Source: Promethearchaeota archaeon
GTDB lineage: Archaea > Asgardarchaeota > Lokiarchaeia > Sigynarchaeales > SOKP01
Length of the DNA: 7,203 nucleotides
Reading direction: 5' to 3'
Assembly (NCBI GenBank): GCA_030620005.1
Contig: JAUXAJ010000263.1
Location: forward strand, 1 to 7,203
The notes below the pieces were generated by a model. It searched no databases. It was not told the origin of the DNA and saw only the letters and a program-made list of their open reading frames with translations. The stretch's first letter is position 1. Each line of letters starts with the position of its first letter. Of this stretch, positions 2,027-6,223 are shown piece by piece. The position numbers and the translations under genes were made by a program.

Positions 2027-2290
2027 TTAATAAGGAACATTTACAACAGATTTTACATCTGGAACGTGCTGAATTATTGCCCTTTCAATTCCATGTTTTA
2101 ATGTTTCTTGAGCGTGCATACAACCAGCGCAATGTCCTTGTAACCGAACCTTTACAATTCCATCATCAGTTATTTCGAGTAGTTCCACATCTCCACCTTT
2201 CAGGAATTTAGAGATATTATAAATTCAATCTAATTGGAGTTGAGGTCTGATTTTCTCGATAACTTGTTTTACCTTTTCTTTATCTACCAT
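2027..2290 (-). CDS. NifU-like Fe-S cluster scaffold, coding sequence split by a 30-nt intron
   Basis: This gene encodes a stand-alone NifU C-terminal (Nfu-type) domain, a cytosolic scaffold that carries an Fe-S cluster and passes it to apo-proteins. Read without interruption it stops after 21 codons: ATG at 2290, then MVDKEKVKQVIEKIRPQLQLD, then TGA at 2225-2227. The same frame then resumes after ten extra codons with GGDVELLEITDDGIVKVRL and continues to TAA at 2027-2029. Removing 2198-2227 rejoins D and GG into the family motif RPQLQLD-GGDVEL and gives an intact 77-residue domain of normal length. The cluster-binding pair is HCAGC (Cys44 and Cys47 of the spliced product), and the C-terminus PDVKSVVNV is typical. 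The RNA at the junction folds as a BHB splice motif (see the intron entry), so I call the gene functional with an intron rather than a pseudogene. It probably has its own promoter and a leaderless mRNA. Confidence 0.85.
2198..2227 (-). other. Putative 30-nt archaeal BHB intron in the nifU-like mRNA
   Basis: Seen directly: in transcript order the intron starts UGAAUUU right after GAU (Asp21) and ends CCUGAAA right before GGU (Gly22). Intron-internal helix: 2226-2221 (GAAUUU) with 2209-2204 (AAAUUC), six Watson-Crick pairs closing an 11-nt loop. Bulge 1: A2229, U2228, then the cut, then U2227. Central helix, exon with intron: 2233-2230 (UUAG) with 2203-2200 (CUGA), four pairs including one G-U. 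Bulge 2: A2199, A2198, then the cut, then G2197. Outer exon helix: after one A-G mismatch (2234/2196), 2239-2235 (CUCCA) with 2195-2191 (UGGAG), five pairs. Established for the tRNA splicing endonuclease: 3-nt bulges separated by 4 bp, cut after the second bulge nucleotide. Both cuts predicted by that rule fall exactly where homology needs them. Inference: endonuclease cutting, then RtcB-type ligation. Confidence 0.85.
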
Positions 2291-2936: not shown

Positions 2937-3276
2937 GTTAAAAAGGAGCTTTTAGCACCATGTGGCTTGTATTGTGGCGTTTGTAGAGATATATTGCTCA
3001 TGAGGATAACAATTTAGAATTTAAACAAGAATTATTACCGGTATTTAAGCTTTGGGGAGCAAAAAACATTGACGATATAGCATGTTCAGGTTGCTTATCT
3101 GAAAGCGTCAAGACCCCTTTCTGTAGTCTTTGGTTATCCGACCAAGGAGAAGGAATTATTTAAAATATATTTTGAAAGAATTTAAAAATGAAGAGTGTGT
3201 TGATTTAGCGAATTCTTCTCAAGCTCAATTCATCACCTTCCTAAAGAGAAGTTGGTTTCTTGATTGGTCGGGATAA
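2937..3276 (+). pseudogene. Frameshifted remnant of a DUF3795-type cysteine-rich protein
   Basis: Three reading frames carry pieces of one protein. From 2937 the frame reads VKKELLAPCGLYCGVCR, the N-terminal Cys motif of DUF3795 proteins. At about 2985-2991 a single-base loss moves the match to another frame, which reads YIAHEDNNLEFKQELL and then IDDIACSGCLSESVKTPFCS before a TAA at 3161-3163. A third frame stays open from about 3126 to TAA at 3274-3276 and could be the degraded C-terminus. The second Cys cluster expected after the PFC motif (a pattern like IRxCA...CxxC...PC) is missing. No ATG precedes the first block in frame. DUF3795 proteins are small, Cys-rich, probably metal-binding and of unknown function. 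A sequencing error could explain one shift but not the missing start and missing Cys motif, so I call it a pseudogene. Confidence 0.7.
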
Positions 3277-3338
3277 AATTCTCGTTTTTTAAAAACATTG
3301 TTTCAGACTTAATAAGAAAGAAGTTATCATGTAAAAAA

Positions 3339-3938
3339 ATGATATTTAAAGAGATTGATAAAACTATTGAAATTAAGATAGTTTATTATGGACCTGCTCT
3401 TTCAGGAAAAACAACGTCAATTAAGGCACTTTTTAGGCATTTCGGTAAAGATCGTGAATTATATAGCATTGAAAGCACGGTAAAAAGGACTTTATTCTTT
3501 GACTACGGAACAATGACTTTTCAATACAAGCCGTGGAAATTAAAGATGCATCTCTATTCTACCACGGGACAAGATTTTTATGTTGTAACGAGACCAATCA
3601 CATTAAAAGCGATTGATGCATTAATTTTTATAGTGGATTCTCAGAAAAAAGCATACGAGCGTAATTTAATTTCTTGGAACGAATTACATGCCTATTTCCA
3701 AGAAGATCTATTCAAATTTCCAATGATTTTATGCTTTAATAAACAAGACTTGCCCAACAAATTTAATTACCTCACATTTTTACGGGAAATTGGTTATTTC
3801 AAGAATAAATACGATAATATTGCCATCAAGACAAGTATCGCGTTGAATGGAGAAGGCGTACTTGATTCGTTCGAGACAATACTATCCCTAACTTTTAGAG
3901 ACATGTACATTGACAACCTTATTCCGGTTTCGAGTTAA
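3339..3938 (+). CDS. MglA-like small Ras-superfamily GTPase
   Basis: This 199-residue GTPase is most like the MglA branch of the Ras superfamily, which Asgard archaea carry in many copies. Visible motifs: P-loop GPALSGKT (18-25); switch I region with RTLFFDYG (50-57), close to the MglA pattern; G3 region STTGQDFY (74-81), where the Ras-type Asp is replaced as in MglA proteins (TVPGQ); a VDSQ segment (99-102); G4 NKQD (134-137); and a G5-like KTSIALNGEGV. No lipidation Cys is seen at the C-terminus, and there is no membrane segment. I start at the ATG at 3339, because MIFKEIDKTIEIKIVYYGP puts the first strand at the usual distance from the P-loop. A TTG at 3264 would add 25 residues overlapping the preceding pseudogene. 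A weak TATA-like TTAATAAG at 3309-3316 fits that start. No Roadblock/MglB partner is adjacent. The family is secure; the cellular role (polarity, trafficking, cytoskeleton) cannot be read. Confidence 0.88.
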   Translation: MIFKEIDKTIEIKIVYYGPALSGKTTSIKALFRHFGKDRELYSIESTVKRTLFFDYGTMTFQYKPWKLKMHLYSTTGQDFYVVTRPITLKAIDALIFIVDSQKKAYERNLISWNELHAYFQEDLFKFPMILCFNKQDLPNKFNYLTFLREIGYFKNKYDNIAIKTSIALNGEGVLDSFETILSLTFRDMYIDNLIPVSS

Positions 3939-4329: not shown

Positions 4330-4521
4330 GTTTTTTACAAGATTAATTCCGAACCGTTCACGATTAAGCTAAATGAAATAAAAAGAAAAGATTTTAGTAA
4401 AGTTGGAGGGAAAGTCGCAAACCTTAGTCAATTAATCTCGAATAATTTTACTGTACCCGATGGTTTTGTTGTTACATCCGCCGCTTATTTAGAGATTCTT
4501 AAAAAAAGGCGTTTTTTATAA
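4330..4521 (+). pseudogene. N-terminal fragment of PEP synthase / pyruvate phosphate dikinase
   Basis: An open frame of 63 codons carries the unmistakable beginning of the PEP-synthase/PPDK ATP-binding domain: KVGGKVANLSQLI, then FTVPDGFVVTSAAYLEIL, matching the family pattern of VGGKxAxLxEL followed by VPxGFxVTxxAY. The match ends abruptly at KKRRFL and a TAA at 4519-4521. Nothing resembling the remaining domains (the rest of the ATP-grasp, the phosphohistidine swivel domain, the PEP/pyruvate barrel) follows before the next gene. There is no ATG or GTG before the match; the frame is closed by a TAG at 4327-4329. Whole enzymes are about 750-900 residues, so this is a small relic, probably left by a deletion or rearrangement. 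A working copy may exist elsewhere in the genome. Confidence 0.75.
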
Positions 4522-4614
4522 TATAAAAATAAAACTAAAACTAATGATTAATAAATTAAAGATTAACAAATTCTATGTGGTGGATTAAATAACTGAAATA
4601 AATAATTCTCAAAT

Positions 4615-5068: not shown

Positions 5069-5090
5069 GTTTACAAAATGAGTTTACAAA
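5065..5090 (+). repeat. Tandem 13-bp duplication at a translation start
   Basis: ATGAGTTTACAAA occurs twice back to back (5065-5077 and 5078-5090). The first copy contains an ATGA overlap with the SCP2-like stop codon, but its frame ends after nine codons at TGA 5092-5094. The second copy opens the dehydratase gene. Thirteen is not a multiple of three, so the duplication makes a decoy start. Confidence 0.85.
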
Positions 5091-6223
5091 ATGATCCATT
5101 TCTTAATATTTCAAACTCAATTATAAATTCTTACGTTAAAGAATGGCAAGAAAATAACAAAAAAGTTGTCGGATATTATTGTACATACATTCCCGAAGAA
5201 TTATTACATGCTGCAAAACTATTGCCTTTCAGAATTAGAGCAACTGGAAATGAAAGTACGGAACTTGGAGATATATATATGGTGCGATTTACTTGTAGTT
5301 TCGTTAGGGCTTCGCTTGATTTGGCTTTAAAAGGTGGCTTTGATTTTTTTGACGGTTATTTAATTTGTAATAGCTGCGATCATAGTAGGCGAATGTACGA
5401 ATTATTTCAACGAAAAGTGTTTAATAGAGAAGGATTTAAAAAGAAAATCCCGCGTTTTTATATTTCAGTCCCTCATATTATTACAAATGCAGGATTTAAA
5501 TGGTTTAAACAAGAAATTGAAGAATTGAAAGAAAAAATTGAAAAAAATTATGATATCAAAAAAATAACTAACGAAGATCTTAAAGAATCGATAAAAATAC
5601 ATAACGAGAATCGAAAACTCTTGAGAGATATTCACGAATTAAGAATACAAACTGTACCAAAAATTACAGGAAGTGAAACTTTACAGATTTCTATGGCGAA
5701 CAGTTCTATTCCGAAGGATATTGCTAATCAGGAATTAAAGCGAATTTTAAAAGTGTTAAATGACAGTGAAGGAAATAAGACAAATCAAAAAAGGATAATG
5801 CTTGTTGGAAGCATCATGGATAATATATATTTTACTGAACTAATTGAGAACGCTGGTGCTTTAATAGTTTCTGATTTTTTATGTTTTGGAACTCGAAACT
5901 TTTTAGATGATATACATGTTGATGGCGACCCCTTAGAAAGCATATCTAAACGCTTATATTATAGAATGTCTTGCCCAAGAATGATGGATGATCATGAAAA
6001 GCGATTAAATTTTCTCAAAAGTGAAATTAAAAAAGCAAAAATAGACGGAGTTATTCTACAGAGAATAAATAATTGTGACCTTCATGGTTGCGATAACATG
6101 CTCTTTGAACACGAATTAAAAGATTTAGGTATAGCTGTATTTAATATTGACAGGGAGATTTTTCAAGCAGACACAAATCGTTTACAAACTCGAATAGAAG
6201 CTTTTTTAGAAATGTTAAAATAA
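5078..6223 (+). CDS. 2-hydroxyacyl-CoA dehydratase / benzoyl-CoA reductase family subunit, HgdB/BcrC-like
   Basis: This 381-residue protein belongs to the HgdB/BcrC half of the oxygen-sensitive [4Fe-4S] enzymes that dehydrate 2-hydroxyacyl-CoA or reduce benzoyl-CoA by ketyl-radical or one-electron chemistry in the cytoplasm. Visible features: the N-terminal entry VVGYYCTYIPEELLHAA; TCSFVRASLDLAL (Cys73); LICNSCDHSRRMYE (Cys100), a cluster ligand site; a helical linker (about 140-230); a second Rossmann-like half beginning RIMLVGSIMDN; YYRMSCPRMM (Cys299); RINNCDLHG (Cys333), further likely cluster ligand positions; and the terminal NIDREIFQAD followed by LQTRIEAFLEML, a standard family ending. 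Length is normal. The true start is the ATG at 5078, since the ATG at 5065 leads to a stop after nine codons. It lies 9 bp after the SCP2-like gene and 43 bp before the partner subunit gene. Substrate unknown; needs an HgdC-type activator not seen here. Confidence 0.88.
   Translation: MSLQNDPFLNISNSIINSYVKEWQENNKKVVGYYCTYIPEELLHAAKLLPFRIRATGNESTELGDIYMVRFTCSFVRASLDLALKGGFDFFDGYLICNSCDHSRRMYELFQRKVFNREGFKKKIPRFYISVPHIITNAGFKWFKQEIEELKEKIEKNYDIKKITNEDLKESIKIHNENRKLLRDIHELRIQTVPKITGSETLQISMANSSIPKDIANQELKRILKVLNDSEGNKTNQKRIMLVGSIMDNIYFTELIENAGALIVSDFLCFGTRNFLDDIHVDGDPLESISKRLYYRMSCPRMMDDHEKRLNFLKSEIKKAKIDGVILQRINNCDLHGCDNMLFEHELKDLGIAVFNIDREIFQADTNRLQTRIEAFLEMLK

What the first reader, a model, noticed from the sequence alone, without database searches (positions are those of the whole stretch)
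2198..2227. A 30-nt bulge-helix-bulge intron interrupting a NifU-like protein gene
Sequence: an in-frame TGA sits between D and GG of the NifU motif, and deleting exactly 30 nt restores a complete domain. The junction RNA folds as a complete hBHBh' element: 6-bp inner helix, two 3-nt bulges, 4-bp exon/intron central helix, 5-bp exon helix with one A-G mismatch. Both cut sites from the known endonuclease rule coincide with the homology-defined boundaries to the nucleotide. Two independent lines (protein alignment and RNA fold) agree, which chance would rarely give. Established: archaeal mRNA introns of this kind are few, the best known in crenarchaeal cbf5. I know of no accepted case in nifU or in this lineage, though I cannot search the literature. 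A pipeline would call this gene broken or miss it.
Basis: partly seen in the sequence, partly recalled or inferred. Interest (0 to 1): 0.93.

Follow-up and report, generated by a model that had tools for sequence, protein, structure and literature searches.

The report
Spliced mRNA introns in Lokiarchaeal genes
A nifU-like iron-sulfur gene of what is likely an Asgard (Lokiarchaeal) organism is interrupted by 30 bases that are predicted to be cut out of its messenger RNA by the tRNA-splicing enzymes, and related genomes carry similar small inserts in seven other genes, so this kind of archaeal mRNA splicing is probably far more common than has been reported.

Summary
A nifU-like gene on the minus strand (2290..2027) is interrupted at 2227..2198 by 30 nt with an in-frame TGA. 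At the homology-fixed cut sites the RNA forms a bulge-helix-bulge (BHB): 15 of 16 scored pairs; 11 of 100,000 shuffled introns do as well. Relatives support it. Two Lokiarchaeal genomes have a similar insert at the same site (30 and 29 nt) and two have a BHB insert at a second nifU site; in each of the four, one NifU gene was found, the interrupted one. A homology screen then found BHB-like inserts of 26-35 nt in seven more genes: Elf1, a Rag-like GTPase, CO dehydrogenase, a B12-binding protein, SCP2, a cold-shock protein and an SBF permease. In 39 of 39 distinct introns tested, at least 3 of 4 central pairs form at the predicted register; at 24 other offsets 0-11 of 39 do. Elf1 introns covary. 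EndA and RtcB genes are present in the four nifU-intron genomes. The mechanism is the known archaeal one; a 2020 paper knew it only for cbf5 mRNA. New are lineage, genes and frequency. No RNA evidence was available.

The parts
2228..2290 (-). Exon 1 of the nifU-like gene (MVDKEKVKQVIEKIRPQLQLD, 21 codons)
   Evidence: translation; alignment with uninterrupted homologues
2198..2227 (-). 30-nt BHB intron; in-frame TGA is its first codon; predicted cuts between 2228/2227 and 2198/2197
   Evidence: absent from 17 of 20 aligned homologues; BHB score 15/16
2027..2197 (-). Exon 2 (GGDVELLEI...VNVPY) with stop codon; holds the CxxC motif of the NifU domain
   Evidence: Pfam PF01106 on the 53-aa ORF (59.8 bits) and on the read-through (78 bits)
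2230..2233 (-). Central helix, exon strand UUAG
   Evidence: pairs with 2203..2200
2200..2203 (-). Central helix, intron strand CUGA
   Evidence: pairs U-A, U-G, A-U, G-C with 2233..2230
2227..2229 (-). 5' bulge AU^U with the predicted 5' cut
2197..2199 (-). 3' bulge AA^G with the predicted 3' cut
2220..2226 (-). Inner helix, 5' strand GAAUUUA (7 bp with 2210..2204)
2204..2210 (-). Inner helix, 3' strand UAAAUUC
2235..2239 (-). Outer exon helix, 5' strand CUCCA (pairs 2195..2191; A.G mismatch 2234/2196 next to it)
2191..2195 (-). Outer exon helix, 3' strand UGGAG

Best explanation
The 30 nt at 2227..2198 interrupt a nifU-like gene with an in-frame stop and can pair with the exons as a bulge-helix-bulge at both junctions, and they are most likely a pre-mRNA intron that the archaeal tRNA-splicing endonuclease (EndA) would cut out and the ligase RtcB would seal, giving an uninterrupted NifU protein. 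Shown from sequence: the insertion, its exact boundaries, the possible BHB pairing, BHB-like inserts at the same and other sites in relatives, covariation in the Elf1 set, and EndA and RtcB genes in relatives. Inferred: cleavage two bases into each bulge, ligation, translation of the spliced message. The intron is likely one of a class of about 30-nt BHB introns scattered through genes of Lokiarchaeia and repeatedly lost or gained at fixed sites.
For: Window: BHB 15/16 at homology-fixed cuts; 11/100,000 shuffles and 0/7,088 other positions do as well; 9 of 20,000 random coding draws with shifts of +-3 allowed.

nifU site 1: similar insert in L012 (30 nt, TAG) and L051 (29 nt, a frameshift, so not a translated peptide insert); two database proteins, P0002 and P0003, carry 10 extra residues at the same place. 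nifU site 2 (GHCAGC|MHAQ): L036 30 nt and L054 31 nt, both 16/16. One NifU match in each of these four genomes, the interrupted one.

Other genes: 43 introns tabulated over 11 sites in 8 genes, in the window and 32 genomes, 26-35 nt.

Register test: 39 of 39 distinct introns have >=3 of 4 central pairs (mean 3.38); 24 other offsets give 0-11 of 39.

Covariation in 28 Elf1 introns (27 distinct): 92.0% of cells paired against 81.4% shuffled (0/500 reach it) and 44-49% when slid; 9 of 21 pairs changed on both sides (0/500); score 0.317 against 0.137. The Pro-codon wobble base covaries with an intron base: A-U 19, U-A 2, G-C 2, A.A 2 of 25 distinct.

Machinery: RtcB in 6 of 6 and EndA in 6 of 6 related genomes searched, two EndA paralogues in 5 of 6.
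Against: No RNA or protein evidence exists here. The energy fold does not form the central helix on its own, nor does RNAalifold on Elf1. Several introns are weak one by one against random coding draws: Elf1 of G027 3,647/20,000, SBF-1 3,211, nifU of G002 1,414, cold-shock 1,269, SBF-2 1,108 (draws that fell off an end were counted as misses, so these are slightly low). In 21 of 28 Elf1 introns one of the four central pairs is a mismatch. Where the sequence left the cut ambiguous by a few bases, I took the register that pairs best. The Elf1 covariation counts ignore relatedness, and I drew the structure from the same alignment. The window's own genome is not held, so its EndA, RtcB and nifU copy number are untested. 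A protein search with an Elf1 exon 2 listed no near-identical full-length protein that could stand for a spliced transcript (best listed 91%, 120 of 472 hits shown); this is uninformative rather than negative.
Confidence: 0.93

Rival explanations
1. Programmed translational bypassing: the ribosome hops over an untranslated hairpin that stays in the mRNA, as in phage T4 gene 60 or the byps of yeast mitochondria (both recalled).
For: The inserts are short, form hairpins and often begin with or hold an early stop codon. Take-off and landing codons code the same residue in 5 of 22 distinct site/codon combinations.
Against: 17 of 22 combinations lack matching codons, the window among them (GAT/AAA). 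In the B12-binding gene and in the GTPase of L001 the conserved residue at the junction is coded only by the spliced sequence (G|AC = Asp, T|TC = Phe). Bypassing gives no reason for a 4-bp exon-intron helix at a fixed offset from both cuts, nor for covariation of an exon wobble base with an intron base.
Confidence: 0.03
2. The gene is a pseudogene, or the insertion is an assembly error.
For: The window holds other broken pieces (2947..3290 and 4340..4540, by eye). The genomes compared are metagenome bins.
Against: Both exons align without breaks to homologues; the same site is hit in independent assemblies; the interrupted gene is the only NifU match in four relatives; 28 genomes have an Elf1 interrupted at one site between recognisable exons; errors would not be expected to make BHB-forming 26-35-nt inserts that covary.
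Confidence: 0.02
3. The insert is a translated 10-residue loop, with UGA read as an amino acid.
For: 30 nt keep the frame; P0002 and P0003 carry an open 10-residue version.
Against: The similar insert of L051 (29 nt) shifts the frame and that of L012 has a TAG; 29 of 43 tabulated introns are not a multiple of three, though the screen favoured frame-breaking inserts.
Confidence: 0.01

Closest known systems
BHB intron of cbf5 pre-mRNA in Sulfolobales and Desulfurococcales (Watanabe 2002, recalled and seen in reference lists; Yokobori 2009, PMC2738675, first of six parts read)
   Same: Protein-coding gene, BHB-like junction, EndA-dependent, 16-44 nt in the paper's table, patchy presence by loss
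   Different: Other lineage (Lokiarchaeia), other genes (eight, none of them cbf5), some genes with two introns; splicing not shown experimentally here
Archaeal tRNA and rRNA BHB introns
   Same: Same motif and cut rule; likely the same EndA and RtcB enzymes
   Different: Here in mRNAs, where reading frame must be restored
HVO_1309 5' UTR BHB in Haloferax (PMC7714728, passages seen)
   Same: EndA acts on a BHB in an mRNA
   Different: There the BHB lies in a 5' UTR; here exons of a coding sequence would be joined
Translational bypassing elements (recalled)
   Same: Short non-coding hairpin inserts inside genes
   Different: No matching take-off and landing codons in 17 of 22 combinations; BHB architecture and covariation instead

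Membership tests
Archaeal BHB pre-mRNA intron | Removal restores the conserved protein exactly | tested here: met
   D|GG boundary
Archaeal BHB pre-mRNA intron | hBHBh' structure: two 3-nt bulges, 4-bp central helix, cuts after the second bulge base | tested here: met
   15/16 pairs at the fixed register, best of 25 shifts; not the energy minimum
Archaeal BHB pre-mRNA intron | Structure conserved in relatives with compensatory change | tested here: met
   nifU site 1 central pair A-U in the window against G-C in two relatives; Elf1 covariation
Archaeal BHB pre-mRNA intron | Host has EndA and RtcB | tested here: inconclusive
   Present in six related genomes; the window's own genome is not held
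Archaeal BHB pre-mRNA intron | Excision and ligation in the cell | not testable with these tools
   no RNA reads
Translational bypass element | Matching take-off and landing codons | tested here: not met
   window GAT/AAA; matching in 5 of 22 combinations
Group I or group II intron | Catalytic core of hundreds of nucleotides | tested here: not met
   insert is 30 nt; no Rfam search was run

The most novel reading that the evidence does not exclude
Lokiarchaeia run a genome-wide, protein-enzyme mRNA splicing system: dozens of minimal BHB introns of about 30 nt per genome, in core genes that include the Elf1 transcription factor and Rag-like GTPases, gained and lost over and over, sometimes two per gene. 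Intron-rich mRNAs would then exist, without a spliceosome, among the closest archaeal relatives of eukaryotes.
Probability: 0.6. Interest if true: 0.96.

Novelty: new member of a known kind. Interest (0 to 1): 0.92.

Why it matters
A 2020 paper states that to date only one additional BHB intron, in crenarchaeal cbf5 mRNA, had been reported in archaea (PMC7714728, passages seen). Here one homology screen and a few searches give 11 sites in 8 genes of Lokiarchaeia. Gene finders would be expected to truncate, miss or mistranslate such genes (P0002 and P0003 appear to carry ten translated intron residues), so Asgard gene inventories used to discuss eukaryote origins may be affected. It also makes the origin, loss and possible regulation of mRNA introns outside the spliceosome testable by comparison across many close genomes.

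Tried and rejected
The own genome is not held. Window protein 550-1833 has no relative in viral contigs. Folding energy as a test gave nothing. RNAalifold does not recover the central helix. Elf1 tree (41 rows; L250 left out as a contig-end piece): intron presence needs 10 changes, 6 forced by well-supported branches, and is not clearly clustered (68 of 500 shuffles as low), so I could not tell one gain with many losses from repeated gain. The search for a spliced-transcript protein was uninformative.

Rows dropped: one search gave 111 interruption clusters, many antisense or one-query matches, and part of its output was cut. One search lists the 28 with at least 85 bits; I kept 14 (L001 and its duplicate L156, L036, L051 twice, L054, L160, L177, L194, L196, L211, L243 twice, the window) and dropped 14 (L006, L009, L016, L017 twice, L022, L030, L031, L034, L063, L182, L201, L244 twice) as antisense, weakly flanked or low-identity, by eye, without testing each for a BHB beyond. 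The screen keeps only inserts with a stop or frameshift, so '43 of 43 disrupt the frame' is by construction.

Rejected: bypassing, pseudogene or assembly error, translated loop, group I/II (see rivals and membership). Literature: six searches; among the papers listed (not all hits were listed) none was on mRNA BHB introns in Asgard archaea; one search found 0 papers. Subscription journals and most preprints are not held.

Full report
THE OBSERVATION. The nifU-like frame on the minus strand (2290..2027) is interrupted after Asp21 by exactly 30 nt beginning with TGA. Pfam NifU scores 78 bits on the read-through and 59.8 on the ORF after the stop. In an alignment of 20 proteins, 17 read through RPQLQ.DGGD without a residue at that place; the window, P0002 and P0003 have ten. 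At the cut sites fixed by homology the RNA has a canonical hBHBh' form: central UUAG/CUGA, bulges AU^U and AA^G, inner 7 bp, outer 5 bp after one A.G mismatch. It scores 15 of 16; 11 of 100,000 shuffled introns and 0 of 7,088 other positions on the strand do as well. Energy alone does not show it: z = -0.83, central helix open in the MFE.

RELATIVES OF NIFU. A protein search gave 223 hits, 120 listed. Two, P0002 and P0003, carry 10 extra residues at the same place without a stop. A scan of GTDB contigs gave 67 loci, of which I translated 52. Four, all titled Lokiarchaeota or Lokiarchaeia, have insertions: L012 (30 nt, TAG) and L051 (29 nt, frameshift) at the window's site; L036 (30 nt) and L054 (31 nt) at a second site, GHCAGC|MHAQ. 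BHB scores are 14, 13, 16 and 16 of 16, each the best of 25 shifts. By eye the three site-1 introns share a core around AGAAUAUCUCUAA, so they look homologous. Each of the four genomes has one NifU match, the interrupted one. Among 227 genomes of the phylum searched, 103 have a match, and only these four show an extended or split match of this kind. Not looked into: G075, G078, G127 and G135 list one stop each without extra length; G077 and G177 match only in part; G012 and G051 have a second, degenerate or partial hit.

OTHER GENES. I compared open frames of the fetched loci with all loci by tblastn and listed insertions that carry a stop or frameshift. The last round used 198 loci, 2.78 Mb, and gave 111 clusters, 28 of them with at least 85 bits. 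Besides nifU I kept: a Gtr1/RagA GTPase (31 nt, L001), CO dehydrogenase (30 nt, L160), SCP2 (26 nt, L177), Elf1 (30 nt, L194), cold-shock protein (30 nt, L211), an SBF permease with two (33 and 31 nt, L243) and a B12-binding protein (32 nt, L051). Families are from Pfam hits of the uninterrupted homologues. In each, removal gives the homologous sequence at the junction: GIFDFGGQ, YYMPICDM, GEIDGTS, FTCPQCGEK, MANGTVKWFNS, VLVWGYMAKG (the homologue has W for Y), TTMGLFWEVP, KPGLDGHDRG. Against 20,000 random coding draws the counts that do as well were: window 9, nifU G001 129, nifU G002 1,414, nifU site 2 3 and 0, GTPase 65, CODH 9, SCP2 79, Elf1 3,647, cold-shock 1,269, SBF 3,211 and 1,108, B12 13 (unusable draws were counted as misses).

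DISTRIBUTION. In 83 genomes of the class, 76 have a match to the B12-binding gene; the split is known in G002, whose match starts at residue 15; a few other rows also start late or hold a stop (G042, G049, G003, G020, G022, G029, G040) and were not read. The GTPase (all 83 genomes match, paralogues included; the list was cut) is split at the same residue in G027, G029 and G070, and G070 has a second insert of 29 nt; other partial rows were not read. Elf1 is found in 72 of 83. I fetched 40 Elf1 regions: 28 suspected from the rows, of which 27 are interrupted at CPx|CGEK by 28-32 nt and one (G073) is not, and 12 controls, none interrupted. With G027 that makes 28 genomes. G044 has one copy with and one without. 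The Elf1 tree needs 10 changes of intron state, with close neighbours differing (G049 and G001; G040 and G036; G004 within G061/G066/G069-G071).

POOLED STRUCTURE TEST. Of 42 introns, 39 distinct, all 39 have at least 3 of 4 central pairs at the predicted register, mean 3.38, mean total score 18.3. At the 24 other offsets 0-11 of 39 do, mean 0.79-2.10, score 7.1-10.8. Caveat: where the cut was ambiguous I chose the best register. In 28 aligned Elf1 introns (27 distinct) 92.0% of cells pair, against 81.4% shuffled and 44-49% when slid; 9 of 21 pairs change on both sides (0 of 500 shuffles), 55 cells (shuffled 16.7), covariation 0.317 against 0.137. The alignment was made by MAFFT without structure; I drew the structure from it by hand, and relatedness can raise the shuffle-based figures. 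One central position is the wobble base of an exon Pro codon and covaries with an intron base (A-U 19, U-A 2, G-C 2, mismatched 2). RNAalifold finds the inner and outer helices but not the central one.

MACHINERY. EndA: two paralogues of about 200 aa in 5 of 6 genomes, one found in G001. By eye and recall, the first keeps the catalytic Tyr, His and Lys and the second lacks the His, which would fit the heteromeric type that a paper title links to archaeal pre-mRNA splicing (seen in a reference list). RtcB: one copy without inner stops in 6 of 6.

KNOWN OR NEW. cbf5 introns of 16-44 nt are the closest case (PMC2738675, part 1 of 6 read). PMC7714728 (passages) says that to date only one additional BHB intron, in cbf5 mRNA, had been reported; that paper itself adds BHB cleavage in a Haloferax 5' UTR. 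In the passages seen, a 2026 review names only tRNA splicing for archaeal BHB (PMC13149111). Six searches listed nothing on Asgard mRNA BHB introns; the library lacks most subscription papers and preprints. So the kind is known; the lineage, the genes and the frequency appear new.

LIMITS. All splicing is inferred. The window's organism is assigned by best protein hits only. The screen sees only genes with a homologue in my sample and inserts that break the frame, so its count is a floor; 'dozens per genome' is a guess from a small, chosen sample (6 introns in 447 kb of G002).

Noticed in passing
window 2947-3290, + strand: Short Cys-rich frame (APCGLYCGVC...) broken by small frameshifts, by eye; looks like a decayed gene rather than an intron.
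   Followed up: no
window 4340-4540, + strand: Fragment that resembles the N-terminus of a PEP-synthase-like protein (recalled, no call), cut off by stops.
   Followed up: no
window 3264-3938, + strand: Arf/Ras-family small GTPase (Pfam Arf, 39 bits).
   Followed up: no
window 5078-6223, + strand: 2-hydroxyglutaryl-CoA dehydratase D-component (Pfam HGD-D, 289 bits).
   Followed up: no
P0002, P0003: Database NifU proteins with 10 extra residues at the intron site: most likely unspliced introns translated by gene finders.
   Followed up: partly
L254 and L281 (G044): One genome has an Elf1 gene with the intron and another without it.
   Followed up: no
G012:C1:3652388-3652600: Second, degenerate NifU-like copy with TAG and TAA about 260 nt before an intact one.
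   Followed up: no
L104, L105: Second EndA paralogue seems to lack the catalytic His (by eye and recall), suggesting a structural subunit.
   Followed up: partly
L247:635-663 (-): Second BHB-like intron, 29 nt, in the Rag-like GTPase gene of G070: central 3/4, inner 9 bp, outer 5 bp.
   Followed up: yes
G048, G049, G038 and others, Elf1 rows: Several genomes list a second, more distant Elf1-like match of shorter length; not read.
   Followed up: no
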